From Deroplatys truncata (taxonomy: Eukaryota; Arthropoda; Insecta; Mantodea; Mantidae), in NCBI GenBank assembly GCA_030765065.1, contig CM060988.1:179531065-179595064 (forward strand): a stretch of DNA of 64,000 nucleotides. The letters are read 5' to 3'. Positions 3,902 to 64,000 of this stretch are shown piece after piece; the stretch's first letter is position 1, and each line of letters opens with the position of its first letter. The translations under genes were made by a program, and so were the position numbers. The notes beneath the pieces are model-generated. The model was given only the letters and a program-made list of their open reading frames with translations, was not told the origin of the DNA and did not search any database.

Positions 3902-3904
3902 AAG

Positions 3905-7862: not shown

Positions 7863-7867
7863 TTTAT

Positions 7868-10560: not shown

Positions 10561-10612
10561 ATGTTCTGCCACAAAATTGAGAGTGAAGTGAAGCATACTG
10601 CGCATCAAGTAA

Positions 10613-10922: not shown

Positions 10923-11399
10923 GCAACGAGTAGGGTGGAGTAAGGCGCATTGGAGTGTTGTTTACCAGTGAGGCCGTGTACGACCCGCTTCGTGAATAGA
11001 CATACAATACGCTTGTGTCTCTCATTCCGGTGTCCTTTATTTTCCACCATCACTAGACTGTGCTGTTTACAGTAGTAAATAAAGCAGCGTATTGACGTCT
11101 TTGTTTACATCAACAGTACTGTGTTTACGGAACTCTATAGTAATATTGCACATACGTACATTGGTTGCTAACTTGTCCGGATCCTTAGGCTGCTGTTGAT
11201 ACATGAAATGAAGTGATTGTTGAGAAATGGAATTTGGAAAGGAAACGTTCCAGGGTATGTTTAGTGTACCTCCACCTTGCACTCACGAGTCCATCCTCAT
11301 GAGCTCGGCCAACCGTGTCGGTCGTCCACTTAATGTTACGCCTTTTTCAAGGCTCCGGCCAACCCGCAGATGCTGTATTGCGACGCAGAGCTATGGCCA
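10923..11399. other. Non-coding, nothing recognised
   Basis: No supportable gene. Short frames at 11067-11421 overlap on opposite strands and show no domain. Confidence 0.5.
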
Positions 11400-12150: not shown

Positions 12151-12179
12151 GGCGCGCTATCGGGAGATAATTAGAACTT

Positions 12180-12870
12180 TCTATCTCCCCCTTCCTCCAG
12201 AGAGTGTGTTTAAATAGTTCTAGACGGATCCAAAACCTTCTGTGGAAGATTCCACAGCCTGTATAAGCGAGCGCTCTCGCGGGAATTCAGTCAGTGCCAG
12301 TTTAGGCCGTTGCAAATTGACAGCGAGTCGAGTGAGTTAGTTGAGTTGCGTCGGTCATCGAGCGAGCGACATCAAGAGCAATTCTCTGAGCGAGTTGGTG
12401 ACGGTTGTGGAGGTCTTGTGTTCGACGACTCCCGAGTGAAATGAACCGTCCGGCGTTAAGAGTCTCGTTCACGAAGGAAGTGAATTGACGGAGAATTGAA
12501 CTAGTTCACCGAAGTGAAGTGAACTCGCAGTGAAACTGAACTGATAAGAACTTAAAGCAGTGGCAGTGAGAACTGAGAGTAATCAGTGACAGTGATAAAA
12601 CTGGACGAAGTCACAATATGCTTGCGAGGTGTGGAGCTTGGCAGCAGACCCCTGGCTTCTCTCGCTACAGCTGATTGAGAATAGGGGCTCCGTCCATCCA
12701 TTAAGCACGAACCCTCGGCTGTGATAAATCGCCGGGGTGGAAATTTCTTGCACCAGACTGAATTTACTCGAGAACGCCCCTGTCAGAGCCCTGGGGGACT
12801 GCTTGTCCAGGAACTACCGCTTCAGGCGCTGTCGGATTCCATGCACGTCATGAGGGCACTATAATAAATC
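12180..12870 (+). promoter_or_regulatory. LTR-like segment with core promoter and poly(A) signals
   Basis: CTGTATAAGCGAGCG (TATA box near 12257) is followed about 30 bp later by TTCAGTCAGTGCC, an arthropod-type initiator. AATAAA-like sequence lies near 12862 (ATAATAAATC). Between them is a leader-like region rich in GTGA/GAGT words with no open frame. This is the signal layout of a retrotransposon LTR or 5' UTR, but no TG...CA borders or target duplication were identified. Confidence 0.35.
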
Positions 12871-16652: not shown

Positions 16653-17260
16653 TTTTTACTTTCTCTACTACGTATAGTAAGTAGGGGAACTATGCATTCC
16701 ACCCAAAAATTCAATACCGAGATTTCACTGGAAATACTTGTTTTGAGACCCCCTGAATCCAAAAAAAATCATTTTTGGAAACATGTCAGAATGTGTCTGT
16801 GAACAGCATAACTAAAAAACGAACAGTCGGATAAACACCAAACTTGGTATTTAGGTTCAGTATCTTCCAGAGATGCGACACGAAGGTTTTCAAGAAAATC
16901 CCCCACCACAGATTACCCTTTACATGGAACATTTTTCGACAATTTTATTTTTCTCAAAAATGGCTCTAACGATTTTGATTAAAATATATGTTTAAGATAT
17001 TTTCATGATAAATGAATTGTATATCTCGAATTTTCTGGGAATGTCTCCAAAAGTATTCTTCATTGTGGACGACTTTTGTGTAACTGGTAAACCATAAGAG
17101 ATAGACAAAATGTTACTACACAAAAAATGTAGATCGCGTTAAAATACACAACTAATGTCATACATTTTTTTTTTTTTGAGTGAACCATTTTCGAGATATT
17201 GCTTGTTATTCCCTTAAATTTTTCAATACTTACTTTCTCAAATGGGAATTCGTTATTCAT
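16653..17260 (+). repeat. RX repeat, 3'-truncated, inside hAT transposase
   Basis: Starts ACTTTCTCTACTACGTATAG after a T-run in the hAT coding region and ends abruptly at CGTTATTCAT, where a second RX copy starts. Its 3' third is missing. Confidence 0.85.
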
Positions 17261-18175
17261 TTTTACTTTCTCTACTACGTATAATAAGAAGGGGAAGTAC
17301 TGTATTGCACCCAAAAATTCGATACCGAGATTTCACCGGAAATATATGTTTTGAGATCCCCTGAATCCAAAAAAAGCATTTTTGGAAACATGTCCGTGTG
17401 TGTGTGTGTGTGTGTGTCTGTGAACAGCATAACTCAGAAACGAACAGTTGGATAAACACCAAACTTGGTATTTAGGTTCAGTATCTTCCAGAGATGCGGC
17501 ACGAAGGTTTTCAAGAAAATCCCCCCACCCCAGATTACCCTTTACATGGAACATTTTTCGAAAATTTTAATTTTCTCAAAAATGCCTATAACGATTTTGA
17601 TTAAAATATTATATGTTTAAGATATTTTCATAACAAATAAAATGTATATCTTGAATTTTCTGGGATTGTCTCCATAAGTATTCTTCATTGTGAACGACTT
17701 TTGCATAACTGGTAAACCATAAGAGATAGACAAAATTTTACTACACAAAAAATGTAGATCGCGTTAAAATACACAATTTATGTCATATACATTTTTGTTG
17801 TTGAGTGAACCATTTTCGAGATATTGCTTGTTATTCCCTTAAATTTTTCAATACTTATTTTCTCAAATGGGAATTCGTTATTCATTTTTTTTGTCTTGGA
17901 TATGCAAAGAGTATTAATCTGTGGCAAAGGGAATGGTGCTGCACCTAGCAACCAGCTATTAAGAGATATGTATGTGTTTAAGGGCTACTGTATTTCTATA
18001 TTGCCCTTGTAAATATATAGTCCCCTTACATCTACAAGAAAATTAGCAATAGAATATGCAAATGAGTCTGCAAATGTTATCTCGATTAGCATGAAGTAGA
18101 TGGAGAATAAACGTTTGTACAAATAGTTTGTACAAGAGTAGAGAAAGTCATGTGAGTGCAACACATCAGATTTTT
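17261..18175 (+). repeat. RX repeat, full length, inside hAT transposase
   Basis: Starts ACTTTCTCTACTACGTATAA, has a GT/GTCT tract (17395-17422) and ends ACACATCAGA plus T-run at 18175, where hAT coding resumes. A useful reference copy (about 910 bp). Confidence 0.9.
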
Positions 18176-21118: not shown

Positions 21119-22849
21119 AAAAAATCTGATGTGTTATACTCACATGACTTTCTTTACTCTTGTACAAACTATTTTTACAAAAGCTTATTCTCCATATGCT
21201 TCATGTTAATTGAGATATCGAGATGTCAATCTTATTGCTAATTTTCTTGTAGATGCAAGGGGAATTGGTAAGTTTTAAGCGATAGTCAAATATTTTAAGA
21301 GCTGGTTGCTATGTGGCGCATTCATTTCTCTTTACATGTCCAGAACATAAAAAAAAAGGAATAACGAATTTGAGAAAATGTTTAAGTATTGGAAAATGTA
21401 AGGGAATAACAAGCAATATCTCGAAAATGGTTCACTCAACAAAAAAAGTATATGACATAAATTGTGTATTTTAACGCGATCTACATTTTTTGTGTAGTAA
21501 AATTTTGTCTATTTCTTATGGTTTACCAGTTATGCAAAAGTCGTTCACAATGAATACTTTTGGAGACATTCCCAGGAAATTCGAGATATACATTTCATTT
21601 CTCATGACAATATCTTAAACATATGATATTTTAATCAAAATCGTTAGAGCCATTTTTGAGAAAATTAAAATTTTCGAAAAAAAGTTCCATGTAAAGGGTA
21701 GTCTGGGGTGGTGGGATTTTCTTGAAAACCTTCGTGTCGCATCTCTGGAAGATACTGAACCTAAATACCAAGTTTGGTGTTTATCCGACTGTTCGTTTTT
21801 GAGTTATGCTGTTCACACACACACACACGGACATGTTTCTAAGAATGCTTTTTTACTTTCTCTACTACGTATAGTAAGTAGGGGAAGTATTGCATTCCAC
21901 CCAAAAATTCGATACCGAGATTTCACCGGAAATACATGTTTTGAGACCTCCTGAATCCAAAAAAAGCATTTTTGGAAACATGTCCGTGTGTGTGTCTGTG
22001 TGTGTGTCTGTGTGTCTGTGTGTGTGTCTGTGTGTGTGTCTGTGAACAGCATAACTCAAAAACTAACAGTCGGATAAACACCAAACTTGGTATTTAGGTT
22101 CAGTATCTTCCAGAGATGCGACACGAAGGTTTTCAAGAAAATCCCCCCACCCCAGACTACCCTTTACATGGAACATTTTTCGAAAATTTTAATTTTCTCA
22201 AAAATGGCTCTAACGATTTTGATGAAAATATCATATGTTTAAGATAATGTCATGAGAAATGAAATGTATATCTCGAAATTTCTGGGAATGTCTCCAAAAG
22301 TATTCTTCATTATGAACGACTTTTGCATAACTGGTAAACCATAAGAGATAGACAAAATTTTACTACACAAAAAATGTAGATCGCGTTAAAATACACAACT
22401 TATATCATATACATTTTTTTTGTTGAGTGAACCGTTTTCGAGATATTGCTTGTTATTTCCTTAAATTTTCCAATACTTATAGTTTTTCTCCAATTCGTTA
22501 TTCATTTTTTTATGTCCTGGACATGCAAAGAGAATGGAATGCGCCACATAGCAACCAGCGATAAAATATTTGACTATCGCTTAAAAGCTACCATATTCCC
22601 CTTGCATCTACAAGAAAATTACAAATAAGATTGACATCTCGATATCTCGATTAATATGAAGCATATGGAGAATAGGCGTTTGTAAAAATAGATTGTACAA
22701 GAGTAGAGAAAGTCATGTGAGTGTAACACATCAGATTTTTTGGATTCAGGGGGTCTCAAAACATGTATTTCCGGTGAAAGCACGGAATCGAATTTTTGGG
22801 TGGAATACAATACTTCCCCTACTTACTATACGTAGTAGAGAAAGTAAAA
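21119..22849 (-). repeat. RX repeat, minus copy split by a second RX
   Basis: The reversed copy runs from AAAAAATCTGATGTG to AAGAATGCTTTTTT at 21851 and resumes at TGGATTCAGG (22741) through GTAGAGAAAGTAAAAA (22849). The split falls inside the T-run that in intact copies reads GCTTTTT(T)GGATTC. Confidence 0.9.
21852..22740 (+). repeat. RX repeat, full length, inserted in another RX
   Basis: Runs from ACTTTCTCTACTACGTATAG (21855) to ACACATCAGATTTTT. It has the longest GT/GTCT tract (21983-22043). Since the host copy is known on both sides, this copy defines RX borders and shows insertion within T-T without a longer target duplication. Confidence 0.92.
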
Positions 22850-22970
22850 AGTGCGCACCTAAAAATCCTAACCCTGCTAATAACACTTCATTTAGAGACA
22901 TGTATGGGAATCATATACTGCCAAGCATACTGCAGCATTGGATCAGACAAGTGACTGTGGATCACGGCAT

Positions 22971-32480: not shown

Positions 32481-33321
32481 AAAAATCTGATGTGTTGCAC
32501 TCACATGACTTTCTCTACTCTTGTACAAACTATTTTTACAAACGCTTATTCTCCATATTCTTCATGTTAATCGAGATGTTAATCTTATTGCTAATTTTCT
32601 TGCAGATGCAAGGGGAATTGCTAGGCTTTAAGCGATAGTCAAATATTTTAAGAGCTGGTTGCTATGTGGAGTATTCCATTCTCTTTGTATTACCAGGAAA
32701 AAAAATAAATAACGAATTTCCATTTGAGAAAAAGTATAAGTATTGGAAAATTTAAGGGAATAACAAGCAATATTTCGAAAATGGTTCACTCAACAAAAAA
32801 AATGTATATGACATAAATTGTGTATTTTAACGCGATCTACATTTTTTGTGTAGTAAACGTTTGTCTATCTCTTATAGTTTACCAGTTATGCAAAAGTCGT
32901 TCACAATGAAGAATACTTTTGGAGACATTCCCAGAAAATTCGAGATATACAATTCATTTGCCATGAAAATGTCTTAAACTTGTGGTATTTTATTCAAAAT
33001 CGTTAGAGCCATTTTTGAGAAAATTAAAATTTTCGAAAAATGTTCCATGTAAAGGGTAATCTGGGGTGGGGGGATTTTCTTGAAAACCTTCGTGTCGCAT
33101 CTCTGGAAGATACTGAAACTAAATACCAAGTTTGGTGTTTATCCGACTGTTCGTTTCTGAGGTATGCTGTTCACAGACACACACACGGACATGTTTCCAA
33201 AAATGCTTTTTCTGGATTCAGGGGGTCTCAAAACATGTATTTCCGGTGAAATCTCGGTATCGAATTTTTGGGTGGAATACAATACTTCCCCTACTTACTA
33301 TACGTAGCAGAGAAAGTAAAA
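32481..33321 (-). repeat. RX repeat, full-length minus copy
   Basis: Runs from AAAAATCTGATGTGTTGCAC to TACGTAGCAGAGAAAGTAAA. It is inserted in a LINE RT fragment. Both RX termini are present. Confidence 0.92.
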
Positions 33322-41675: not shown

Positions 41676-43617
41676 CACATGTCTAGAACTGTTGCGCCAA
41701 TTATACCCACAGCGAAGATCTCCAGATCGGAAGAGCGTCTCCATCGCCGTCTGTGCACTCATGGGAAGTTTACATTTCCTGGTTTGGGGAGGGGACGACC
41801 AAGATGTAGGGGAGAAGATTCTGGATTCTGTGCACACGACTCCTTCTATCAGTACACGAAGGTTAGCGTTGCAAATGAAGGTTCCTCATGCAAGAGGAAC
41901 AGTTGTAGCCTTATCATTTGCAACGTGTACAGACCCTGTCACCAGCAGAATGCAGATTACCCTGCTCGATTGATGTGCAGTGGTTCGTGCAGTAGTGTAC
42001 TACAAATCCAAACTTTCCTGCCTTAGTGTGAAGATGTGTTTTTGTTCTATTGTTATTTGCCCCACGCTTTGGGAGCCAATTTGAAGAAGGTTTGTTGCTG
42101 CTATGTACGGAAAGCCGATTTGAAGTAGGAGTTGTATTGTAGTTCAAATGTTGGAGAGCCGAACTTGAAGTAGTTGCATCCGCACGTATGGTAAAAAGTT
42201 TCCGGTAGCCTTCGCCCCAAATGTTTAAAAAATATTAACTTTGTAATTTTGACTGTTTCTTTAAATATTATATATTTATGTTTGCCTCGGCTGCGTCAGT
42301 ATTTATTTTTAGAGACATGAATGTCTTAGCAGGGAGTGGTGCGACTGAAGAATGTAGGCTTACACAGATTATAATTTTACTTCACTCCTTTTATTAATGC
42401 TTGACACGATTTAAATAACACTTCACTGATATAGAGAGCTGTGAGATTCTTTTGTTAATTACTAGCACGTTTTAACACGTAAACTATTTTCGTCTCACAC
42501 TGAATACGTATTAAACTTCTCGAGGACGTGTCTCATGTCTGGTTAGGAACACTGTCTACTAGCAACTGACTTCTGAATTTGTAAATTTTTTCCTTTTCAA
42601 TTTCTGATTGGCTAATTCTAGTCCAAGAGAATACCTTGATTTAACTAAAGCTTTTTCTGGTTGCTGATTGGCTATTTTTATAAACTGTCACTAAAATTAC
42701 ATTATTGCGTCCAAGAATCACAAGTAACATTTAAACTTTCTAATTCATTATTGCCTCAAAGTTACCTCATTGTTAACTCATTGTTAGCAACTTTTAACCT
42801 ATTATTCTCACAGCTCCTACATTATTAAATTACGTAATACATTCACATAACATTATTACACATGTATACAATAATATAAACATATATAATGACTGTAATA
42901 TACACTTTTTATATATTGTTACATACACATATTGCTTTAAGGCGGGCTGTCATTGAATTTATATATTATATAATTTGACTGAAATCATTTAAGTGTTAAA
43001 AATACTGCCTCAATTGTTATTTACAGATGAAGCACAGTGCACACGAGATGGAATTACAAATTTTCACAATAGCATGTATGGGCATATGAAAACATTGTTC
43101 CATCTCATCACCAAGTGCGGTTCACTCTCAACATGTGGCCGGTATCATTGGAGATCGGTTAGTAAGCAGACCTACGGGGTAGGCGTACACAAACTTCCTG
43201 GAAAACACCATACCTCGTGTGTATGAAGACATTCCACTGAGCATTCGTCAACAAGCTCACTTCTTGCAAGAATGCGCTCCTGCACACTTCAGTCGTATCA
43301 CTCGCCGGTACTTGGATCGAAGGTTTCCTGGGTCGACGGATAGGGAGAGGTGGCCCAGTTGCTTGGCCAGCACGCTCACCTGATTCGAACCCTGTCGATT
43401 CCTACTATGGGGCCATTTAAAAGAGTTGGTGTATTCGTCTCCTTTGCCTGACATGAAATCCCTTCAGAATCGAATTGTGGCAGGTTGTGAGAAAATGCGC
43501 AGTACTCTTGGAATTTGGGATCGTGTTCGCAGGCCACGAGACGACGATGTGTGGCCTGTATTCAAGCAGGAGGTGGACATTCTAAACATCTTCTGTAAAG
43601 AAAGCTACCTGCGGTAA
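41676..43617 (+). pseudogene. DUF4817/DDE_3 mariner-superfamily transposase, split by a solo LTR
   Basis: The N-terminal part (41676-42028) reads ERLHRRLCTHGKFTFPGLGR, then RGRPR, STRRLALQMKVPHARGTVVA and ADYPARL, the HTH/linker segment of this family. The frame is cut at 42028 by an LTR and resumes at 43013 with LLFTDEAQCTRDGITNFHN (first catalytic Asp). A series of frameshifts leads to APAHFSRI-like, PVAWPARSPD-like and finally VYSSPLPDMKSLQNRIVAGC to a C terminus near 43617. The two halves meet precisely at the LTR target duplication, so they were one gene before the insertion. Many frame breaks make it old. Terminal repeats of the carrier element were not located. Confidence 0.75.
42029..43012 (-). 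mobile_element. Solo LTR, family L1, 984 bp
   Basis: In reverse complement it starts TGAGGCAGTATTTTTAACAC and ends ...CATCTTCA. Flanking 4-mers are AGTG (42025-42028) and ATTG (43013-43016), one mismatch. It is homologous along its length to 50651-51592 and 53626-54573. Near its 3' end (minus orientation) it holds TTGGCTCCCAAAGCGTGGGG, a primer-site-like module, plus two eroded repeats of it (near 42112 and 42155). No coding sequence. Confidence 0.85.
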
Positions 43618-50650: not shown

Positions 50651-51592
50651 TGAGGCAGTATTTTTAACACTTAAATGATTTCAGTCTAATTATATAATAT
50701 AAATTCAATAACAGCCCGCCTTGAAGCAATATGTGTATGTAATAAATTGTAAAATGTATGTAACAGTCATTGCATATGCTTATATTATTGTATCCATGTG
50801 TAATAGTATTATGTGGATATATTACGTAATTTAATAATGTAGGACCTGTGAGAAATAGGTAAAAAATTGCTAACAATGAGGTAACCTTGAGGCAATAATG
50901 AGTTTGAAACTTTAGCAATACTACTTCTGATTCTTGGAAGCAATAATGTAATTTTAGTGACAGTTTATAAAATAGCCAATCAACAACCAGAAAAAGCTTT
51001 AGTTAAATGAAGGTATTCTATTGCAGTAGGATTAGTCAATCAGAAACTGAAATATAGCAAAATTTACAAATCTAGAAGTCAGTTGCCTGCAGACAGTGAT
51101 TGTAGCCGGATGCGTGATGCGTCCTCGAGAGATTTTATACGTATTTTGTGTGAGACAAAAATAGTTTACGTGTTAAAAGTGCAAGTATTTAATAAAAACA
51201 TCTCACAGCTCTCTATATCAGTGAAGTGTTATTTAAATCGTATCAAGCATTAATAAAAGGAGTGAAGTAAAATTATAATCTGTGTAAGCCTACATTCTTG
51301 TTGCACCACAACCCTGCTAAGAGAAGCGTGTCTCCAACAATAATACTGACGCAGCCGAGGCACACATAAATATATAATACTTAAAGAAACAGTCAAATTA
51401 CAAAGTTAATATTTTTTTTAAACGTGGGGCAAATAGCAATACAACCTACTTCAAACTGGCGCCCAAAGCGTGGGGCTAAAAATAAACTCCTATAACAAAA
51501 TATCTATTTCAAATTGGCTTCTGAAACTACATATCTTTCTCAAATTGACGCCCAAAGCGTGATGCAAATAACGTAACAAACCACCAACTTCA
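50651..51592 (+). mobile_element. Solo LTR, family L1, 942 bp
   Basis: Begins TGAGGCAGTATTTTTAACAC and ends CCACCAACTTCA. ATCC flanks both sides (50647-50650, 51593-51596), a 4-bp duplication as in Ty3/gypsy-type elements. AATAAAAG lies near 51254 as a poly(A) signal. Its last 170 bp contain two LTR-end/primer modules (ACTTCAAACTGGCGCCCAAA-GCGTGGGGC near 51450 and CTCAAATTGACGCCCAAA-GCGTG near 51538), an eroded one between, and a final ACTTCA at the true border. Confidence 0.88.
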
Positions 51593-51596
51593 ATCC

Positions 51597-52024
51597 CCAC
51601 CTTATCTTTTTGTTTTTTAATCTAGTCATAGCTGCATAAGAATACAGTAGCACCTGAACACCCTACATTTTGATACCTTGCAGATTTATTTGTTATTTTT
51701 TCTTTGAAAGCTATTAAATGTAACGTATGTGCCGTAGTTCAACAAGGTCTCTAGCACATCTTCACTTGTACACATTTTAAGGAGTTTCTGCGCATGCGCA
51801 GCTAATTATGACTAATTAATTTATGGCCAAATACATGCACGGGATCGAGAAGGCCATGGAAGCAAATATAGTATGCTTTATTTTACTCCTCGATTAAATC
51901 AAGTTATTCATTTAAATCACTGCAGCATAGTTCTATTTGAATAGTGGGTTTAAAACCAATTTGCTGTTATGTTCTCTGGCATAAATAGTTGATTTGTTTG
52001 TGTTATCGTTAGTGAGTAAGGTAA
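51597..52024. other. Probable 5' UTR of the jockey element plus unassigned sequence
   Basis: No open frame. GTTATCGTTAGTGAGTAAGGTAA precedes the ORF1 ATG at 52025. The 5' end of the LINE was not located. Confidence 0.4.
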
Positions 52025-52203
52025 ATGAACTCATCAGAACAATCTGCCTGCACCAAGAAGCCTAAACTAAACCACAAATCTCCATTTGCTTCTCACAACA
52101 GATTTTCCGTGTTAAATGAAGAGAAAATGGATGAAACAGCTAAAGAAGTAAGTATACATTCCAATGATACTTCTCATAATCTAAATAAGCCACCACCTAT
52201 ATA

Positions 52204-53446
52204 CGAGGGTGGATTGATAAGCCAGTGACTTTTTAAAGAAAATAACAATTTTTTCCAAAAAATAAATTGTATTTCTCAACATAGTCTCCTTTCAGTTCAA
52301 TACACCTTGTCCAACGTTTCTCCAATTTTTTTAATCCCTCCAAAAATATGATTTTTGGAAGTCTGCAAAATATGAGGTTATTTCTGCCATGATGCGTTCA
52401 CTGGACGTGAATTTCTTCCAAAGCAAGCAACATTTTCAGGTTTGCGAAGAGGAAGAAGCGTTCGGAGCCAAATCTGGAGAATATGGTGGGTGAGGTAGCA
52501 GTTCGTAGTTCAATTCCACAAATTTTGCAATGGCAATGGCTGACTTGTGTGCGGGTGCATTATCCTCGTGAAAGGGATCCTTTCTCATACCCAAAAATTC
52601 GTGCAGAATGTTATAAATCCGTTCACTCGAGATGTTTACAGTCTTGGTTATCTCGCGGATTTTCACTCGGCGGTCTTCGAACACAATATCGTGAACTTTG
52701 TTCACTATTTCTTCTGTTGTGACCAAAACCGGTGTCCTATGCGTACGGCATTTTTATAATAATTTATTCATTTATGATATTTACATTTTCTGGTTTAGTT
52801 TAACACTGGATATACACAGACAAATGGTTTCTTAAACAGAAGTGTGCACTAACATAAGATAGTAGTACCACTAATATTGATTAGGTAAAGAAGGGTGTTT
52901 AGTTTCCCTTTTGTTCCTCCTTGCTTTGGTCGTACTTCTATATAAGTTTAGTGGTTTACGTCAGATATACACCTGTGTAGTCTACAGCCGAAACGAGAGG
53001 AATGGTGTGAATCCACACCTTGTTTCCCATGGGCAAGAAAACTGTCTCTCTCACAACGGAGATATTCAACATAGGTGTTTAAATGGAGATGACCGTAGCT
53101 CGTAACAGCGTTAAGTGTTCGAACGGCCACATCGAAATTCTGTGAACCATGCCATGTGATGGAGCAAAGTCCCCATAATACTTGTTCAGCTTTTCTTCTG
53201 TTTCCTTCACCGTCTTACCACGCAAGAAGTAGTGCTTTATCAGAACACGAAATTCACTTTTCTCCATTTTCTACAAAGCAATGCACATCTGCTTATTTTA
53301 GACGCTCTCAACAATGTTCTAAGAAACAAATGACGAGAATTTCTGCGATTATATCCAGAATAGATGCAAGACTTGGGGGCAAGCAAGAAACTTGTGATTA
53401 GAACGCTATCTCTCGTCAAAGTCATGGACTTATTAATCCGCCCTCG
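52204..53446 (-). mobile_element. mariner transposon in jockey ORF1
   Basis: The ends CGAGGGTGGATTGATAAGCC and, in reverse, CGAGGGCGGATTAATAAGTC continue as inverted repeats (GTGACTTT / ATGACTTT). TA lies on the left (52202-52203); the right has CA, one substitution from TA. The interior carries two separated parts of a mariner transposase with about 360 bp of foreign sequence (52745-53100) between them. Confidence 0.88.
52436..53267 (-). pseudogene. mariner transposase with internal deletion and insertion
   Basis: The N terminus starts at ATG 53267, MEKSEFRVLIKHYFLRGKTV, the first helix region of a mariner transposase. It shifts frame near 53155 (EFRCGRSNT readable in a neighbouring frame). 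Then 52745-53100 is unrelated sequence. It resumes with VTTEEIVNKVHDIVFEDRRV and the second HTH (REITKTVNISSERIYNIL), then jumps in frame from HEFLGMRK to DPFHEDNAPAHKSAIAIAKF: about 85 residues, including the first catalytic Asp, are deleted. The second Asp (HEDNAPAH) and third (PYSPDLAP) are present. The C terminus is shifted. It could not be active, but its terminal repeats are preserved. Confidence 0.88.
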
Positions 53447-53625
53447 CACATAACCAAATTAGTGGACAATTTATAAACTTCTAATGTACCTAAAACAATT
53501 CAACATCGGACCGTACCAACACGCGACGGTCAGCGACAACAAGCTCAAATTAAATTGTGAAACAATAGAAGGCTACAGAAGTGTTACCAATTATCTGGGA
53601 AATAACAAAGCTGCATATTACAGGT

Positions 53626-54573
53626 TGAGAAAAGTTAGTTTTAGAAGGAGTTGTATTATATTTCAACTGTTGGGAACCGAACTTATAATTCGTTGCAACC
53701 CCACGTATAGTACCCGCTTTCCGGTAGCCTTCGCCCCAAATGTATTTTCAGGTGGTCTTTACACCAAGTTTAAAAATAATAGTTTTTTAATTTAACTGTT
53801 TCTTTAAATATTATATATTTATGTTTGCATCGGCTGCGTCAGTATTATTTTAGAGACATGCATATCTTGGCAGGGGGTGAGGCGACAAGACACAGACTAT
53901 TATTTTACTTCACTCCTTTATTAATACTTGATGCGATTTAAATAACACTTTACTGATATAGAGAGCTGTGAGATTCTTTTTATTAATTAATTACACTTTT
54001 TAACATGTAAACTTAATTTTCGCCTCACACGAATACGTATTAAATCTCTCGAGGACGCACAAGCAACGCATCCAGTTATGAGCACTGTTTGCAGGCAACA
54101 CGTCTGGTTATGAGCACTGTTTTTCAGGCAACTGAACTGATTTCAACCGTCTAAATTTGTAAATTTCTGTATTTCAAGTCTCTGATTGACTAATCCTACT
54201 CCAGTAGAATACCTTCATTTAACTAAAGCTTTTTCTTGTTGTTGATTGGCTATTTTTAAACTGTCTCAAAATTTACATTATTGCTGCTCTAATAATGACT
54301 AGTAGCATTTAAACTTCCTTACTCATTATTGCCTCAAGGTTACCTCATTGTTAGCAACTTTAAACCTGTTTCTCACAGCTCCTACATTATTAAATTACGT
54401 AATGCATTCATGTAACATTATTGAACATGTTTACAATAATATAAGCATATGCAATGACTGTTACATACATTTTACAAATTATTACATACACATATTGCTT
54501 CAAGGCGGGCTGTTATTGAATTTACATATTATAATTTGACTGAAATCATTTAAGTGTTAATAATACTGCCTCA
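53626..54573 (-). mobile_element. Solo LTR, family L1, in jockey ORF1
   Basis: In reverse complement it starts TGAGGCAGTATTATTAACAC and ends ..AACTTTTCTCA. AGGT is duplicated (53622-53625, 54574-54577). Removing the LTR and one AGGT rejoins jockey codons (AAYY-RFQ-MEIERSFR). Its primer-site modules are eroded (GGTTCCCAACAG and GGGGTTGCAACG in reverse near 53670-53705). Confidence 0.92.
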
Positions 54574-54699
54574 AGGTTTCAAATGGAAATTGAGAGAAGC
54601 TTCAGGGTTGCAGTCAGAGGACTGCATCCCTCATGCGATACCGGCATAATAATAGATGAACTGAAAGAACTAGGTTATCAACCTATACAAATGGTTCTA

Positions 54700-55806
54700 C
54701 TGTGTTTTTCAAATGGGATGATGTTTGTCCTTGAGCACGGTCAGAGCGGCAACCAATCCGCTGTTGTCATATTGCATTCGCCGTAAGCTAAGCATGACGT
54801 GCGCTAGGCGAATCTGTTTCTAATAAATATAATTTGCGCTAAGACAAAAATTCAAATTTTGCAAAAAGCAACCCACTAGAAGGTAGGGAGTAATTTTCGT
54901 AACACAACCGTAAAAACCACATATTTTTAGCTCAAATAGTTTTCATAATACAAACGAATAAACATACCCATATGTTATATCATAACCACGTAAGCACTGT
55001 AATGGTCACATTATTTGTATGTATGGATTATTGTATACATTATGTATGTATATTTGTAATTATATAGCACTACTGACTTGATGGTGATAAAGAATTATGT
55101 TGAAAAACCAAGGCGTTTGTTAAAGCTGAGAGAGAGCAAACAGCCCACCCAGCTCACTTGTGTTACTTGTAGAATGCTGAATCTGCAGAACGTGAGCCGT
55201 CACATGTTTATTATTGTGTGTTGTTTCTAAATCTGGGTTGGAGTTTATTTACCCCACACAGTTAATATCAGTATGCAGTTGTTCAGAGAGCAAGCAGCAA
55301 GAGTAAAATAGTGCAATGGCTTATTGTGGTGAATTTAGTGGCGAGTCAAAGAGGCAGGTATTGCGAAGTCAGGCTCGAAGTAATATTTAGGGTCTACTCG
55401 TTTTTTAAAAAATGCAACAATGAGGAACACAGAAATCAACTTGATTTCAAAAATCCTCAACAGGTTACTGCTAAAGCGTGTGGTGTCGGTAAAGCAAGTG
55501 TGTCTCGCATTTGCGGAGAGGCAAGATTAAATGCACAGGTAATTCATAACCTATAATTATATAACACTTAAAAAATATGTACGTAACATGCGAGTATATT
55601 CCCAATTATGAATTTAAACACCAGGAGAATTATAAAAGTTTAGAAAATTCAGTTTGGGTTGCTGTACTTCGACCATTCTAGCGCCAGGCCGATGTGTGAG
55701 TGAGAGGAAAATATGAAAAGAGTGGGGGTAACGAGGCGGCAACGCTGTGCACGCAAATGCACCTCATTCGCTGCAGCTCAGAACTCTTCCCATTTGAAAC
55801 TAATAG
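54700..55806 (+). mobile_element. TA-flanked DDE_3-type element in jockey ORF1, 1107 bp
   Basis: The ends CTGTGTTTTTCAAATGGGA and, in reverse, CTATTAGTTTCAAATGGGA are imperfect terminal repeats. TA lies at 54698-54699 and 55807-55808. Removal restores the jockey frame QMVLVHHPVTK. The interior holds an HTH-coding segment but no catalytic domain, so it is an internally deleted copy. Confidence 0.88.
55316..55549 (+). pseudogene. DDE_3-type transposase N-terminal HTH, possibly an exon
   Basis: ATG 55316 opens MAYCGEFSGESKRQVLRSQA and RSNI, then after a frameshift RVYSFFKKCNNEEHRNQLDF and NPQQVTAKACGVGKASVSRI followed by CGEARLNAQ. The middle is a helix-turn-helix (VTAKACGVGKASVSRI) of the type that precedes DDE domains in TA-inserting insect elements. 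The coding signal ends at CAG followed by GTAATT, a plausible splice donor, and no coding sequence follows within the element. The carrier's ends are at 54700 and 55806. It resembles the fragment at 31633-31773 and may be the HTH partner of the catalytic fragment at 40926-41458, though they are not copies of one locus. Inactive. Confidence 0.7.
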
Positions 55807-56097
55807 TAGTGCACCATCCAGTTACCAAGTTACCTTTACCTCTCTTTTTTCTTGACCTGAAACCAGGCCCAAAGATGAACAGATATACGAATTAAACGGC
55901 GCAGTTGTAAAAGTTGAACCACCAAAACCTAATTCAATATACAAATTGTCAATCCTATGGGCACAGCAAGAACTATTGCTACAAACCTGCTAGGTGTGTC
56001 AAGTGTGATGGTACACATCCAACATTCCGCCTATTTGTGTTAACTGCAAAGGAAATCATACCGCTAATTCCAGAGGCTGTCCTTACATGAATTCTGC

Positions 56098-57871
56098 GAA
56101 GAATGGGGAATTAAAGTAAATATAAATAAATAAAAAGTTATGATATTTAAAAGAGGAAATAAACTAAAAAAAGAAGAAAACCGGTAGATGGGAGGTTTAA
56201 AGTTAGAAGTTGTCAAGGAGTTTGATTATTTGGGGGTGAAGCAGTACGTTTTGAGTAGCTAAATAAAATTACAATCATAGTGAACATAGATATTAATAAC
56301 ACTAGGAATAGTATTGAAAATGACTGGGAAGCGAATGTTACTAAATGAGAAGGGTTAGACAGTGCCATCAGCGGCCGGAAACGGGTGATTTTTCCCTCTA
56401 TTGTTTAGAGTCCCGTTAGGTTGCTTGAAAAGCAGACGTGTAGGAAAGGGTCATGTTCGCCAAAACCCCGATAGCTTTAGGCATCCAATGAAAGAAGCTA
56501 GAAATCAGGTGATAGTGGAATGGGGAGATAGAAAAGTTGAAATAGAGAAACAGGAGAGTTTAGAAGACACACTTGGTCGTGGTAGTTCCTTGGAGATGGT
56601 TCTTAGAAAATGTGTCGGCGGATAGGTGCGATGATATGAAACGTAGCAGTAAGGGAATGCGCGTGTGTGTCGAAGTAATAGCATGAATAAAATTTTAAAA
56701 CGGTGACGGGAAATAAACGAGCAGGAAAACAAAACAGTCGTATTCACCACTAACCTGAGATCCAAGATCCATGCAAATCCCTGAGCTAGTACCGAACCCG
56801 GGACCATTCCTACAAATCCTGTGCCGCCCAATAGCCACATACCATCGCAAATTGGCCGCCTAGCGAGGTTCTAGAATAAAACCGACGGAGATACCACCGC
56901 AGGGGTGAGAATGAGAAGTAATGGTGAATGGGCGGCGCATAGCAGGAAGGTTATGGCTAAAGGAAAGGCGGCAATGATAGGAGTAAGGATGTGCAAATAC
57001 AAATTATAAATGCCAACTAAATGGATAGAAAGAATGTATGAAGCATTGGTAGAAGCAAGAATGCCATATGCAAGAGAAATTTGGGGGGGGGGATCTGAAT
57101 TAAACAAAAAAATAGATCAGAGCTATAGAATGTTTTGTAAAGAGCTATTGGGGTTACCAAGATCAGCACCAGGGGAAGTAGCATTAGTGGAATTAGGAAG
57201 AATAAGAAGAAAGGGAGTCATACTAGAAAGGATATTGAAATTTTGGTTTAGATGCATGAGAAAAGATGAAGGGGAAATTTTAAAGATATGCATGGAACAA
57301 CAAAAGGGTATGAAAACTAAAAATAGCTGGTGGATCGGGGTAGAAAAAATTATGGAGAAGATAGGAATGGGAGGTATTTGGAGAGCAGGAGAAAGAAATA
57401 GTAATGGCTTCCGGATAACAGTAAGAAACAGAGTGGAGGACATAGAAAGACAAGAGATCTGGTGAAGCTTAGAGAATAAAAAATCACTAGGGCTTTATAA
57501 ATTAGTAAACAGGAAATGGGGAAGAGAAGGGTGTGTGGATTATTGCAATAAGGAGGAAAAATAAGCGTTTGCATGGATGAGAACAGGATCATTGTATCTG
57601 AGAGGGCTAAGAGGCAGAGAAAACGAATTTGTGAATTATGCGGAGGTAGTGAAAGCACAGAGCATTATATGACAGAATGCAAAGAATTAGCAGAATGGAG
57701 ACAATACGTATGGGAGGAAAAATAGTAGCAATTAAAATGTTAACAAGAAAAGAAGATAAGAAAAATAAGAATATGGAGGAGTTTCTAAAGCAAGTAAAAG
57801 GGAAATGGATTAGAAAAGTAACAGAGATAAGAAAGGCAGAAGGGCAAAAGGAGGAGGGAGTGGATGGGTAA
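56098..57871 (+). pseudogene. LINE RT thumb and C-terminal region, broken
   Basis: EFCEEWGIKVNINK-stop-KVMIFKRGN, then LEVVKEFDYLGVK (56200-56260), is the RT segment after the catalytic YADD motif, which is itself missing. After an insert the frame resumes near 56930 with KVMAKGKAAMIGVRMCKYK and a 151-codon open frame from 57010 (ERMYEALVEARMPYAREIWG, KELLGLPRSAPGEVALVELG, ILKFWFRCMRKDE). After stops come FAWMRTGSLYLRGL, CELCGGSESTEHYMTEC (C-x2-C-x7-H-x4-C) and KWIRKVTEIRKAEGQ to a stop at 57871. The same C-terminal motifs are at 34094-34510. RT and endonuclease cores are absent, consistent with 5' truncation at integration. Confidence 0.78.
56745..56850 (-). repeat. tRNA-like SINE fragment (S5), minus orientation
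   Basis: Reverse-complemented: GGTCCCGGGTTCGGTACTAG (B-box-like), CAGGGATTTGCATGGATCTT. This is the post-head region of a common insect SINE type. The A-box side is eroded. Confidence 0.5.
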
Positions 57872-57992
57872 TAGGGATTAAAGGCAGCAAGCAAGGGATG
57901 TTTAGATGAGCCAGAAGGCCAGGGTGCCAGGCAAAAGGACTAGTGTAGTTGGCAAGAAAATTAGCACATTAGGTTAAGTTAGTTTATAAGTG

Positions 57993-58839
57993 AAATATTG
58001 TTACACTCACATGACTTTCTCTACTCTTGTACAAACTATTTTCACAAACGCTTATTCTCCATATGCTTCATGTTAATCGAGATGTTAATCTTATTGCTAA
58101 TTTTCTTGTAGGTGCAAGGGGAATATGGTAGGCTTTAAGCGATAGTCAAATATTTTAAGAGCTGGTTGCTATGTCGAGTATTCCATTCTCTTTACATTAC
58201 CAGGACAAAAAAAATGAACAACGAATTCCTATTTGAGAAAACATATAAGTATTTTAAGGGAATAACAAGCAATATCTTGAAAATGGTTCACTCAAAAAAA
58301 AAAAAAAAAAAAAAAAACGTATATGACATAAATTGTGTATTTTAACGCGATCTACATTTTTGTGTAGTAAAATTTTGTCTATCTCTTATGGTTTACCAGT
58401 TATGCAAAAGTCGTTCACAATGAAGAATACTTTTGGAGACATTCCCAGAAAATTCAAGATATACATTTTATTTGTTTTGAAAGTATCTTAAATATATGGT
58501 ATTTTAATCAAAATCGTTAGAGCCATTTTTGAGAAAATTAAATTTTTCGGAAAATGTTCCATGTAAAGGGTAATCTGGAGTGGGGGATTTTCTTGAAAAC
58601 CTTCGTGTCGCATCTCTGGAAGATACTGAACCTAAACACCAAGTTTGGTGTTAATCCGACTGTTCGTTTCTGAGTTATGCTGTTCACAGACACAGACACA
58701 CACACGGACATGTATCCAAAAATACCTTTTTTGGATTCAGGAGGCCTCAAAACATGTATTTCTGATGAAACCTCGGTACCGAATTTTTGGGTGGAATACA
58801 ATACTTTCCCTACTTACTATACGTAGTAGAGAAAGTAAA
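57993..58839 (-). repeat. RX repeat, minus copy in a LINE 3' region
   Basis: Runs from TGTTACACTCACATGACTTT (terminal AAAAATCTGATG lost) to TACGTAGTAGAGAAAGTAAA. It holds an A-run of 24 at 58295-58317. Close in sequence to 32481-33321. Confidence 0.9.
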
Positions 58840-59134
58840 AAGGTTGTGTATGAAAAAATGTACAAAGCATCAAAGTACAGAGGCTGTCCACTGCATACAC
58901 AACTGCAAAGATCAACTCAGTTAAACTCTTGTTATGCAAAACTAACTGCTCACAATAATGTGCCTGTCTATGAATCATATGTAAGAAATGAACCACAGCA
59001 CAATTTATTTAGTAAGGTTCAGGGTAAGAACTCATACTCAACATAATTCATACTCTAGTTATGCTGATGCTGTTAAACAAAATGTTACAAATATAAGCCG
59101 TAATGATACACTGTGCAAGCTTATGGTTAAAATA

Positions 59135-60444
59135 CGAGGGCGGATCGAAAAGTAACGCACAATATTTTTTTACAAGAAAGTTTAATAGTTAAAACAACAA
59201 CATAAATAAAAAATGAACTTACACCTTTTACCTACTTTTCGACATAGTCACTAAGTTGTTCAACACATTTCTCCCATCTCAATACCAGTTTCAATATGCT
59301 CTGTTCGTAGAAGTCCGTTTCCTTGGAGTATAGCCATCTGCGGACTGCTGATTTCACTTCTGCATCTGTCGCAAAGCGTTGGCCGGCCAGGAATTTCTTC
59401 ATGGGACCAAACAGATGAAAGTCCGACGATGCAAGGTCCGGACTGTATGGTGGATGCTGGAGCACCTCCCAACCAAATTTGGTGATTTTCTGACTAACAG
59501 TAGCAGCAACATGGGGACGAGCATTGTCATGAAGAATTTTGACAGCGTCAGCATTCGTGTTGTGGCGTTTGTCACGAAGGGCACGATGCAACTTCACCAA
59601 AGTTTTCATGTAGGCTGCAGCATAGTGGTCCCGTGTTCAGCAAAGTCCACCAATACACCATGCATATCCCAAAACGCCGTCACAAGCACTTTTCTAGCAG
59701 ATTGAGTCACTTTGAATGTTTTCTTCACTGGGGAACCAGCATGTTTCCATTCCATACTTGCCTGCTTGGTTTCGGGAGTGTAGTGGTATGCCCACGACTC
59801 ATCACCAGTGACTATTCCCTTCAGAAAGTCATGCCCTTCTGCGGTGTACCGCGTTAGGTGATCCAAGCTCATCGTCATTCGCTGGCCCTTGTGGTTGTCT
59901 GTTAGGTTCTTAGGCACCCAGCGAGCGCTAACTTTACGAAATTTCAACCTGTCGTGAACAATATCGTACACTGCACCATAGGAAATGTTGAATTGTTGCG
60001 ATAAGGTTCGCAGTTGCACACGCCGGTCGTTCAAAATTGCCGCCTCAATGCTTCTGACATTCTGCGGAATTGCAGCTGTTACCGGCCTCCCGGAGCGTGG
60101 CGAATCACTAAGGTTCACTCGGCCCTCTAGGAAGAATGGACACCACCTGGAGACATTGCTACGGTTCATACATACCACGCATGTACCTGTGAATATCACT
60201 CGGTTTACGTACTTTGGCCCACAAATATCGAACCACACCTCTCTGCTCTTCACACGTGGACGACGGTAACATGCGCGCCATCTGTGTTGCGTAGTTCACG
60301 CTTCTCTCACTAAAGCTGTACATGAAACAAAAAATACCCTCTGTAGTGAAAACTTCAAACTACATCTGTGTGAAATTGCAACATCGCAGCTGCAATACCA
60401 AGGCAGAAAAAAATTATTGTGCGTTACTTTTCGATCCGCCCTCG
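59135..60444 (-). mobile_element. mariner transposon, 1310 bp, well preserved
   Basis: CGAGGGCGGATCGAAAAGTA at the left and, in reverse, exactly the same at the right: about 28 bp of matching terminal repeat (through ACGCACAATA). TA duplications lie at 59133-59134 and 60445-60446. The best preserved DNA transposon in the window. It is inserted in the last codons of jockey ORF1. Confidence 0.95.
59232..60281 (-). pseudogene. mariner transposase, near full length, two frameshifts
   Basis: The start at ATG 60281 gives MARMLPSSTCEEQRGVVRYL, the proper mariner N terminus; the longer frame from 60253 is out of register until about 60185. After a frameshift near there, NVSRWCPFFLEGRVNLSDSP, RSGRP and the second HTH (QFNISYGAVYDIVHDRL) follow, then WVPKNLT. 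First Asp in IVTGDESWAYHY. A second frameshift near 59615 (after AEHGTTM) leads to ILHDNARPHVAATV (second Asp) and PYSPDLASSDFHLFG (third Asp, 34 residues later: D,D34D). It ends at the stop at 59232. About 350 residues in total, the normal mariner length. Every catalytic residue is present, so only the two frameshifts obviously inactivate it. Confidence 0.95.
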
Positions 60445-60612
60445 TAGATTCACTGATCTGTATTATACTTCCACTCATTAATACATTGCAACAGGTGATA
60501 CCCGCGTTGCTTAAAACAAAATGAATTCCGGCCAACCAATAAACATCTGCACATGGAACAGCAAAGGCATAAATAACAAATAGCATGAATTGAAACTCTT
60601 TCTACACACATA

Positions 60613-60963
60613 CTGTTGGACAACGAGAAGAAGGCGAGCGGGGCCTGAGGGGTGAGCGGGGTTCTGTAACTGTTTATCTGCTCACGTACTGTCGATTGTT
60701 TACTACGTTTACTACGAAATGCGTTTATGTGTGCAAATGAACCACCCATACTGCCAGATTTGATAAAAGTAGAACAGCAACCGCCGTAATAGGTGTTAAC
60801 GCATTGGCTCTTGCCATGGGTGAGCACTTGACAACACTGTGTAGTAGTTTATAACCTCCTTAACATACTTATCGTATCCACACGGCGAGCGTAAATATGA
60901 TACGGACGCAGGAAAGTGTTGATGTTACACATTCCTCTCGCTTGCCTTCTGGTGGTTTATCAG
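60613..60963. mobile_element. TA-flanked MITE in jockey ORF2, 351 bp
   Basis: CTGTTGGACAACGAGAAGAA left, and in reverse CTGATAAACCACCAGAAGGC right, sharing AGAAGGC(G/A)AGCG. TA lies at 60611-60612 and 60964-60965. Removal rejoins jockey codons FLHTY-NIDVLLA. No open frame. Confidence 0.82.
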
Positions 60964-62100
60964 TACAACATAGACGTTCTATTAGCTAGCAAACCAAGCT
61001 AGCTCCACATATTTACTTCAACGTACTAAGATATGCCATTTAAGAGATGACTATTTTAGCAATAAAAGGAAGGAAGGAGCAGCCATTCTTGTTAAAACAT
61101 CCCTTACACACGAAGAACTTCCTCCATTAATAGAAAGTACTTTCGAAATATATCGAAAATTCATCTATATAAATAACAAAAATATCAAATTGGTTCATTC
61201 TATTCTGCACCAGAAAATAAACTTACAGCAGCAAACTTCTGGGCATTTGAACACGACATGAGTACACACTACTTGCTATGAGGAGATTTTAACTGCCAAC
61301 ACCCTAGGTGAGGGTCCAACGTTACCAGTCCAAGAGGGCGTATTCTTAGTAAAGTCTCGGACCAACTCTCATTTGAATTCATTCATACAATAGAACCAAC
61401 TTATTATCCTACAGCAGGACAGACAGCTGCTATTTTTGATTTTTTCATTGTTAAACATGCTGCAAACTTGTGTTCCTTTCCGTCTGTACTTACATATGAG
61501 CTTAGTTCAGACTACTTTTCAGTACTCATTTCAGTACATTCTGTTATTGGAAGCAACAATAACACTAATAATACTTTAATAAGACATCCTTTTGAATGGA
61601 ATTGCTATACGTACATCTTGGACAAAATAACTAATTTAAAAATGCCATTGAAAGCTGCATCAACATGGCTGCAAACATCACCATACATTAAAAACTTATT
61701 GAAGAAAAAAAGGCTTGTCGCAAACTCTGGGGAAAGAACCAAATGTCCACAGCATATAATCGCGCCACTCGTCAGCTCCACAATTCTCTTAAGGAGAAAC
61801 ATGCACCGTAACATTGCTATGCAAAATACACTATTCTTTAGATACCAGTGATGGCTCACTTTGGAAGAAAACTAAATCTCTAACAAAACAACTTCGTATC
61901 AACAACACATGGTATACTACATCAGAAGAAAAAGATTATATTTTCTCAGATATCCTTCAAGAACAATTCAAACCTAACCCTCCTGGAAACTCGCAGTTTA
62001 ATGAGCAAATAAGTGAAGACATTTCTAAACCACTGCAGCTATCTTCCAACTCCATACACTTCACCCCAACTCAAGTCCGCAATGCAATAAACAGAATATC

Positions 62101-62494
62101 ATTCATTCATTCATTCATTCATGCATTATCTGTTTACCCTCCTCTTATGTTTGACTTACACCCCCAGGACTTACAAGCGGGTGCCTGGGGTCAGAGGCCC
62201 GTCGAGGAGCAGACACTCATGGATCACACAGAGCATCCAGGATGGGTGATCAGCCCGATGCCTGGTAAGAGATGAAGGAAGTAGATGAAACGAAATGTTG
62301 GTGAAATGGATGAAAGGAAAGGTGATGATGGAGCAGTTGGCGGAATGAATGTCGGGGGAAACCGGAGAACCCGGAGAAAACCCGCCCAGACACCGCTTCG
62401 TCCACCACAAATCCCACATGCAGGTCCCTGGGATTGAACTCGGGCCGCCTCGGTGGGAGGCGAGCGGTCTAACCACTCGGCCACGGCGCCGCCT
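62101..62494 (-). repeat. tRNA-derived SINE, family S1, with 14-bp target duplication
   Basis: The head at right, in reverse GGCGGCGCCGTGGCCGAGTG ... GAGTTCAATCCC, has clean A and B boxes; an (ATTC)n tail lies at left. ATAAACAGAATATC lies at 62087-62100 and 62495-62508. It contains an extra ~45 bp (around 62300-62345) relative to the copy at 9261. Overlapping open frames are by-products. Confidence 0.96.
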
Positions 62495-63023
62495 ATAAAC
62501 AGAATATCAGAAAAGAAATCTCCTGGTCACGATATGATTACCGCACTTCTGCTTAAAGATCCCCCAAGAAAACTTTGGTACTGTTAACACAAATATTCAA
62601 TGCAGTAATTCAAGTAACCTACTTCCCTACAACATGGAAGTATGCAAAAATACTAATGATACCAAAACCAGATAAACCAAAATCAGATCATTATTCATAT
62701 CGTGCTATTAGTCTCTAACAATTTTCTCCAACGTGTTTGAAAGTTTGTTTCCTCCTCATGTGCTTAGACCATTGCAGGCCCTCATACCGCAAACTCAGTT
62801 TGGCTTTAGACCCAACGATTCTTGTTCTCAGCAGTTGCATCGAGTGGTGGATATAATACTGGATACTTTTAAAAAAAGTGTTCCTGGCTACTGAAAAAGC
62901 TTTTGACACGGTGTGGCGTGCCGGATTCTTACACAAAATTAAACATGTCAGTGACACTATTTACCTAGTAATTAAGTCTTATCTCTCAAGAAGAACTTTT
63001 TCCGTGAAATGCAATGGTTATAT

Positions 63024-63573
63024 TGTGGCGTATTATTAATTTTATTGTCATTACCAGACGCACTGTTGTGCTGTATTGTTGCTATCAGACGTAGCATTGT
63101 TGTGTTTCTTTAGTAATATTTCGGCTTAACGGTGTTTCCTTTCGGTGGGGACCACGCCAAAGGGAAAGATCTTGACGCCAACCCTGTCTGGCTTCGGCTA
63201 GACACGGTTGGTGGGGGTAAGATAGCGTCACTCCAATGCAAGTGTTCGTTGGAGCCAGACGTGTGTGTGGCCGGTCTACGGTTTAGTAACAACTTCCTCC
63301 ATCCTTTTTCCTTTGTTCAAGATGTAGAGACGCCAGACGTGTTGTGAATAAATATCAGGTATGTAAAGGTAATGTGCGTTATTTAATTTTTCAGTATAGC
63401 ATAAAACCTACGCCTTCTCCTTAATTCCATACCAAGGTCCCGACATTTGCTGCCAGCGAGTTACGCCACCTCATGTGCGTGTTGGGGTGATGTAAATTAA
63501 TTCCTTCTTCTGTAACCTTTTGGCCTTCACCCCAACATGTAACATTTTTGGTGGAGGCGCCGGGTATGTAACA
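63024..63573 (+). mobile_element. Solo LTR, family L2, in jockey RT
   Basis: Starts TGTGGCGTATTATTAATTTT and ends GGGTATGTAACA. ATAT flanks both sides (63020-63023, 63574-63577). GAATAAATATC near 63347 is a poly(A) signal. Inside are primer-site-like tracts: CCCGACA-TTTGCTGCCAGCGAG near 63440, and ATGTAACA-TTTTTGGTGGAGGCGCCGGG near 63536 followed by a second ATGTAACA at the border. Unrelated in sequence to family L1. The short frames inside are not genes. Confidence 0.8.
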
Positions 63574-64000
63574 ATATACGCCTCGTATTTTCCGAAAAGT
63601 GACAATCTAATTATATCGCAGTACGCAGACGAAATAGCTATTCTCAGCAAAGGTGACAGTCACACAACAATCAACACTCTCAAAAAAAGTGTGTTCAAAA
63701 TAGATGAATGCTGCAAAAAGTGGAGGATTAAAATGAATCCCAAAAGTCCAGTTTAGTTACATTTACTTACAAAACAAGAACTAGCAGAAACATAATCATA
63801 TTAAATAATGAAATTATCCGCAAGCTGAGTCTGTCAAATATTTGGGATTAACATTAGACACAAAACTAACCTAGAATCCACACATCTCCTCTTTGGTTAC
63901 AAGACTGAGGCACATACTTCATCAATTGAAATATCTCATCAAAGGTTGTTCACCTCCACTACTGCATCTCAAATGCGGGTGCTCAATTTGGGGCTCAGCT

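What the first reader, a model, noticed from the sequence alone, without database searches (positions are those of the whole stretch)
52025..64000. One jockey LINE dissected by eight insertions with readable order
ORF1 and ORF2 fragments of a single jockey-type LINE are spread over 12 kb. The gaps are complete elements with target duplications: mariner, solo LTR L1 (AGGT), DDE_3 element (TA), LINE (12 bp), mariner (TA), MITE (TA), SINE (14 bp) and solo LTR L2 (ATAT). At five or more joints, removing insert plus one duplication restores an uninterrupted jockey frame. This gives exact insertion sites and a relative chronology of eight families at one place.
Basis: partly seen in the sequence, partly recalled or inferred. 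Interest (0 to 1): 0.8.

Follow-up and report, generated by a model that had tools for sequence, protein, structure and literature searches.

The report
Old jumping gene broken by others
A dead jockey-type mobile element of about 4 kb has been split into pieces by eight later insertions of other mobile elements, and a ninth lies just beyond the window; this is ordinary genome history, unusual here only for how many insertions hit one copy.

Summary
Window 51841-64000 is one copy of a ~4.0-kb jockey-type LINE. Copy L044 of the same 4.29-Gb genome is uninterrupted and collinear with every piece. At seven of eight joints other copies show the exact empty site, in 4 to 36 of 37 copies by joint. 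At the eighth (L2) the duplication ATAT is present, but ~70 bp of LINE beside it are missing only here. A ninth insert (LTR, ATAT) lies just past the window. Corrections: the LINE starts at 51841. Mariner 1 carries a nested 360-bp repeat. The second LINE is 5'-truncated and carries two nested inserts. L2 is an LTR plus a stub, not a clean solo LTR. The claimed order is only partly readable: the eight lie side by side, so nesting gives only jockey before all eight, and host inserts before their guests. Divergence suggests an older set (L2, mariner 1, L1, LINE2, mariner 2) and a younger one (SINE, DDE_3, MITE). The copy is not older than its sisters, yet shows about 24 times their counted insertion density; that figure is an upper one because the sister count is biased low. 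A known kind of structure.

The parts
51841..52203 (+). jockey LINE piece 1: 5' UTR and start of ORF1 (ATG at 52025), ends with target TA
   Evidence: collinear with L039, L042, L044, 85-89%
52204..53446 (-). mariner 1, internally deleted (family unit about 885 bp), duplication TA/CA; interrupted by a nested repeat
   Evidence: transposase pieces HTH_48 (above cut-off) and DDE_3 (below cut-off)
52752..53111 (.). 360-bp repeat nested in mariner 1 (class not determined, duplication not resolved)
   Evidence: 39 of 39 other listed mariner 1 copies have the halves -4 to 45 bp apart, 363 bp here; own repeat family with common ends, up to 96%
53449..53625 (+). jockey piece 2 (ORF1)
53626..54573 (+). 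LTR L1 without internal part; duplication AGGT
   Evidence: family matches
54578..54699 (+). jockey piece 3 (ORF1)
54700..55806 (.).
   Evidence: no Pfam match for its 96-aa ORF
55809..56082 (+). jockey piece 4 (ORF1, PRE_C2HC/zinc-knuckle region)
56083..58877 (+). LINE2, 5'-truncated non-LTR element, 12-bp duplication CAGAGGCTGTCC; carries two nested inserts
56240..56901 (.). insert nested in LINE2, 7-bp duplication GGGGTGA; class not determined, not searched on its own
   Evidence: 35 of 39 other listed LINE2 copies have both sides adjacent, 25 of them with exactly a 7-bp overlap (ends)
57999..58843 (.). 0.85-kb high-copy element nested in the LINE2 3' UTR (subterminal inverted repeat ACTTTCTCTACT), class not determined
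58890..59134 (+). jockey piece 5 (ORF1)
59135..60444 (-). mariner 2, 1310 bp, 38-bp terminal inverted repeats with one mismatch, duplication TA
60447..60612 (+). jockey piece 6 (end of ORF1, start of ORF2)
60613..60963 (.). MITE, 351 bp, duplication TA; 94-96% to 39 relatives
60966..62100 (+). jockey piece 7 (ORF2 endonuclease region), with an ~80-bp deletion at 61651-61656
62101..62494 (-). SINE, 394 bp, 14-bp duplication ATAAACAGAATATC; 95-97% to 39 relatives
62509..63023 (+). jockey piece 8 (ORF2 reverse transcriptase)
63024..63573 (+). L2: LTR (63024-63544) + 20 bp of primer-binding-site-like sequence (recalled) + 9-bp end of a second LTR; duplication ATAT; ~70 bp of LINE missing on its left
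63578..64000 (+). jockey piece 9 (ORF2), continues beyond the window to ~64861 with a ninth insert (LTR, ATAT) at 64202-64709

Best explanation
A jockey-type LINE inserted once at this place and died. Three further inserts lie inside these (one in mariner 1, two in LINE2) and came later still. Shown: one LINE, exact empty sites at eight of nine joints, nesting. Inferred: the mechanisms, from duplications and element type, and the order among the eight.
For: L044 is collinear with all pieces and lacks the inserts; seven other copies align essentially end to end in one match. Empty sites at seven of eight in-window joints and at the ninth. Insert families recur elsewhere with matching ends for mariner 1, mariner 2, MITE, DDE_3 and SINE. 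Nested guests shown by contiguous relatives and, for the one in mariner 1, by its own family. Divergence agrees with nesting: terminal branch jockey 0.064, mariner 2 0.039, 0.85-kb element 0.043.
Against: The L2 joint has no clean empty site: ~70 bp of LINE are gone beside the duplication, in none of 37 other copies. Family ends agree only partly for L1 (8 of 39 matches start within 7 bp of its start) and for L2 (24 of 39 end at 63544, not 63573). The insertion number is an outlier against sister copies of equal age, which plain random insertion does not explain.
Confidence: 0.95

Rival explanations
1. The pieces are remnants of several different LINE copies that happen to lie in order.
For: Identity of the pieces to L044 varies from 79 to 92%.
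Against: Pieces are all on the + strand, collinear, overlap by no more than 17 bp (duplications plus chance), and the joints restore sequence found unbroken in other copies.
Confidence: 0.01
2. The density of inserts marks an insertion hotspot or an especially permissive region rather than chance.
For: 8 inserts in 3,445 LINE bp here against 10 in 101,862 bp over 37 sister copies, while the copy has near-median age (rank 16 of 36 terminal branches). The 0.85-kb element alone matches at about a dozen places in this window, some partial.
Against: The finding was picked because it is dissected. The sister count is a lower bound: searches rank by match and the window copy itself is absent from the 40 scored of 395 candidates; inserts longer than the fetched flanks are missed; one search shows further inserts outside the loci (in C6:32.9, C16:35.8, C16:146.6, C6:122.6 Mb) and, one of about 1.0 kb in C16:490.6.
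Confidence: 0.3
3. At the L2 site the LTR element and the ~70-bp LINE deletion are one event or mechanistically linked.
For: The deletion ends at the left ATAT copy and is seen in none of 37 other copies (largest gap there 28 bp); L2 itself lacks nearly all of its internal part and second LTR.
Against: ATAT is intact on both sides, as expected of ordinary integration; the ninth LTR with the same duplication has no such deletion. An earlier or later independent deletion is possible.
Confidence: 0.35

Closest known systems
Transposition-in-transposition (TinT) and interruption analysis (PMC3014933, PMC2517846; abstracts and outlines seen)
   Same: Older elements interrupted by younger ones, with direction giving relative age
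   Different: Those methods use genome-wide counts of who interrupts whom; here one locus with eight side-by-side inserts gives almost no order among them
Nested LTR retrotransposons of plant genomes (PMC6911290; search listing and start of abstract seen)
   Same: Elements inserted in elements, here up to three layers
   Different: Here the host is a non-LTR element and most inserts are DNA transposons, a SINE and LTR remnants
Jockey-type non-LTR retrotransposons
   Same: ORF1 with PRE_C2HC, ORF2 with endonuclease and reverse transcriptase in relatives of this copy
   Different: This copy is dead, with deletions and nine inserts; clade placement by tree not done

Membership tests
Jockey-type LINE | ORF1 with PRE_C2HC | tested here: met
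   L044 ORF1 piece PF07530 E 4.3e-07, above its cut-off; window piece only E 0.12 and an ORF1 piece of L043 no match
Jockey-type LINE | ORF1 zinc knuckles | tested here: inconclusive
   zf-CCHC_4 E 0.087 in L044, below its cut-off
Jockey-type LINE | ORF2 endonuclease of the Exo_endo_phos type | tested here: met
   L043 ORF2 piece PF14529 E 3.8e-15; window pieces gave no match
Jockey-type LINE | ORF2 reverse transcriptase | tested here: met
   L044 PF00078 E 1.3e-13; window pieces E 0.00044 and 0.18, below the cut-off
Jockey-type LINE | position in the jockey clade of an RT tree | not tested
Jockey-type LINE | target duplication around this copy | tested here: inconclusive
   3' end runs into GT/AT repeats near 64861 in extended coordinates; no duplication identified by eye
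mariner (mariner 2) | TA duplication, terminal inverted repeats, mariner transposase | tested here: met
   38-bp inverted repeats, Transposase_1 E 2.5e-08, empty TA site
Solo LTR (L2) | exactly one LTR between duplications | tested here: not met
   24 of 39 other matches end exactly at 63544, 28 within 2 bp, the longest at 63563; window keeps 20 + 9 bp more before ATAT
Solo LTR (L1) | exactly one LTR between duplications | tested here: inconclusive
   AGGT on both sides and empty site; 28 of 39 matches end within 6 bp of its end but only 8 of 39 start within 7 bp of its start; no parent with two LTRs was examined
SINE | long duplication, high copy number, simple-repeat tail | tested here: met
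   14-bp duplication, 3543 candidates, TCAT tail
SINE | head derived from tRNA, 7SL or 5S RNA | tested here: inconclusive
   no Rfam match at E 0.1 and no tRNA call

The most novel reading that the evidence does not exclude
This stretch of contig C14 is a genuine insertion hotspot or refuge: a LINE copy of ordinary age has collected over twenty times the counted insertion density of its sisters, from at least eight families with different target rules, so the cause would be local chromatin or relaxed selection and not target sequence.
Probability: 0.2. Interest if true: 0.4.

Novelty: new member of a known kind. Interest (0 to 1): 0.2.

Why it matters
It is a clean case with exact empty sites for seven in-window insertions plus a ninth outside, and three nested ones, usable to study insertion preferences and relative ages in a 4.29-Gb genome. 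It does not by itself give a chronology of eight families. If the excess of insertions over same-age sister copies survives an unbiased census, it would point to regional control of where mobile elements persist.

Tried and rejected
Patchwork of different LINEs: rejected by empty sites. LINE copies carrying the inserts when they moved: rejected, L044 and seven further near-full copies lack them. Older age of this copy as the reason for many inserts: rejected, its terminal branch is near the median (two of 37 sister copies were dropped from that tree for having under 1,200 aligned bases). Fewer interruptions on C16 than elsewhere (the pattern reported for L1 on the X in mammals, PMC2517846 abstract): not seen, 6 in 62,107 bp against 4 in 39,755 bp. 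A tRNA head for the SINE: not found. A solved-structure sequence match for an endonuclease piece: none at E 0.01. A family for the 96-aa ORF in the DDE_3 element: no Pfam match at E 1. Dating by consensus was not done; for the LTRs only identities were read. A short-query census of the LINE (58873-59132), planned for unbiased interruption counts, did not complete. Paper searches on nested insertions with jockey in insects, on LINEs and the X chromosome, and on nested elements and genome size (listings only) showed no listed paper closer to this case.
Full report
What was checked. The window is C14:179531065-179595064 of a 4.29-Gb genome held without a name. Two pieces of the supposed LINE were searched in it, and six copies were fetched with longer flanks. 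Together with the loci returned by the searches this gives 37 other copies.

One LINE. Blastn of window 51501-64000 against the six longer copies shows pieces in the same order in each, LINE pieces at 72 to 93% identity apart from 23-25-bp matches at 100%. Copy L044 is uninterrupted from its position 955 to beyond 4579, and window pieces 51841-52204, 53448-53620, 54577-54702, 55807-56082, 58873-59134, 60445-60613, 60964-62101, 62495-63019 and 63573-63973 follow each other along it. The other five differ: L039, L040 and L041 carry inserts of their own, L042 has a large deletion, and L041 and L043 start later in the element. With L044 as query, seven other copies align in one match from near its start to near its end: C6:12.2, C16:545.6, C16:172.3, C16:278.5 (from 100), C16:436.2, C16:608.7 and, to position 3676 only, C10:139.2 Mb. 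Relatives carry PRE_C2HC in ORF1 (L044), an endonuclease (L043) and a reverse transcriptase (L044), the architecture of jockey-type elements (recalled); no RT tree was made.

Joints. For each joint, 60 bp of left flank with one duplication copy and 60 bp of right flank were joined and searched in the 37 copies. Copies spanning the joint by at least 20 bp on both sides: mariner 1, 4; L1, 6; DDE_3, 8; LINE2, 14; mariner 2, 21; MITE, 22; SINE, 36; L2, 0; ninth LTR, 33. Copies with any match were 5, 6, 13, 16, 24, 24, 36, 37 and 34; the low numbers at the 5' end are due to truncated copies and 1.5-kb flanks. Gap-free within 8 bp of the joint: 4, 6, 7, 12, 20, 19, 32, 0 and 29. Duplications are TA (right copy CA) for mariner 1, AGGT, TA, CAGAGGCTGTCC, TA, TA, ATAAACAGAATATC, ATAT and, for the ninth, ATAT.

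The L2 joint. All 37 copies have sequence here that the window lacks, about 70 bp in L044; the largest gap in any of them is 28 bp. In L044 it encodes the GVPQG stretch of the RT (motif recalled). ATAT is nevertheless present on both sides of L2. Of 39 other L2 matches 24 end exactly at window 63544 and 28 within 2 bp, where the sequence reads CATGTAACA; in the window 20 bp of primer-binding-site-like sequence and TATGTAACA follow before ATAT. So L2 is a remnant of an LTR element reduced by an internal deletion, not by clean LTR-LTR recombination (inference). Whether the neighbouring LINE deletion came before, with or after the insertion is open.

A ninth insert. Sequence past the window shows LINE to 64201, an LTR at 64202-64709 with ATAT on both sides, then LINE again to about 64861. 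Its last part is 78% identical to L2 over 87 bp, and both start TGTGGCGT.

Nested guests. In 39 of 39 other listed mariner 1 copies the halves lie -4 to 45 bp apart, while the window has 363 bp between them; that stretch is itself a repeat with common ends elsewhere, up to 96% identical. Of 39 other listed LINE2 copies 35 show both sides of window 56240-56901 next to each other, 25 with exactly a 7-bp overlap and 10 with -5 to 18 bp, so this is an insert with a GGGGTGA duplication. A 0.85-kb element at 57999-58843 interrupts the LINE2 3' end: locus L057 holds the uninterrupted LINE2 tail, itself inserted in another jockey copy. The 0.85-kb element occurs alone in the jockey copy L040 and matches at about a dozen places in the window, some partial.

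Order. None of the eight lies within another, so structure gives only: jockey before each of the eight; mariner 1 before its guest; LINE2 before its two guests. Divergence adds a coarse ranking. Best identity to a relative (gaps counted): DDE_3 97, SINE 97, MITE 96, mariner 2 91 (300-bp query), LINE2 91 (main part), L1 90 (part; 89 over most of it), mariner 1 89, L2 88%. The first three are young; the other five cannot be ordered safely, since only the 40 best of 729 to 12,359 candidates were scored. Terminal branches: jockey window copy 0.064 (36 copies in the tree, 0.030 to 0.118, rank 16), 0.85-kb element 0.043 with 13 relatives, mariner 2 0.039 with 7 relatives. These agree with the nesting.

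How unusual. Over 37 other copies, 10 inserts longer than 80 bp were seen in 101,862 LINE bp (0.098 per kb), at most two per copy, against 8 in 3,445 bp here. A Poisson tail of 3e-9 follows but must not be taken at face value. This locus was picked for being dissected. The searches rank by match and under-sample dissected copies, as shown by the window copy's absence (40 scored of 395). Inserts longer than the flanks are missed: one search shows more inserts outside the loci (a second one in C6:32.9; two in C16:35.8; one each in C16:146.6 and C6:122.6, copies not), and together put one of 1,006 bp in C16:490.6. Two pieces on C16 at 331.98 and 332.01 Mb may be one copy split by about 36 kb. Even so no other copy in these calls showed more than two. 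The copy's age does not explain the excess.

Verdict. A real and well-preserved case of nested mobile elements. The kind is well known, and methods built on it exist (PMC3014933 and PMC2517846, abstracts and outlines seen). What remains open is why this one copy was hit so often, and the compound event at L2.

Noticed in passing
G000 contig C16 (707 of 4,290 Mb), copies listed: The jockey family is concentrated on C16: 24 of 38 distinct places (query copy included; two of them 36 kb apart could be one split copy) and 22 of 37, with 16.5% expected by length. The MITE is too (19 of 39 best matches), while mariner 1 and L2 are not (2 of 39 each). These are best-match lists, not full counts. C16 may be a sex chromosome; not tested.
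   Followed up: partly
window 64202-64709 in extended coordinates (L075 about 402-909): A ninth insert, an LTR related to L2, sits in the same LINE with the same ATAT duplication, 0.6 kb from L2.
   Followed up: yes
window 63020-63023 and 63574-63577: About 70 bp of LINE are missing exactly at the L2 insertion site and in none of 37 other copies.
   Followed up: partly
L040 (C13:100.66 Mb) and C6:122.62 Mb, LINE position about 2995: Two jockey copies carry an ~0.8-kb insert at the same position; in L040 it is the 0.85-kb element, in an A-run. The other was not read. Repeated targeting of A-runs or shared descent.
   Followed up: no
window 1793-2651, 16653-18163, 21132-22851, 32493-33321 and others: The 0.85-kb element with subterminal ACTTTCTCTACT repeats is very frequent in this window, in both orientations, with copies next to or inside each other.
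   Followed up: partly
C6:127.32-127.48 Mb: Four jockey copies spaced about 51 to 57 kb apart on C6, two of them sister copies in the tree, look like a segmental duplication.
   Followed up: no
window 50651-51433 and 42124-43013: Two further LTRs related to L1 (81% and 77%), the first inverted, lie upstream in the window.
   Followed up: no
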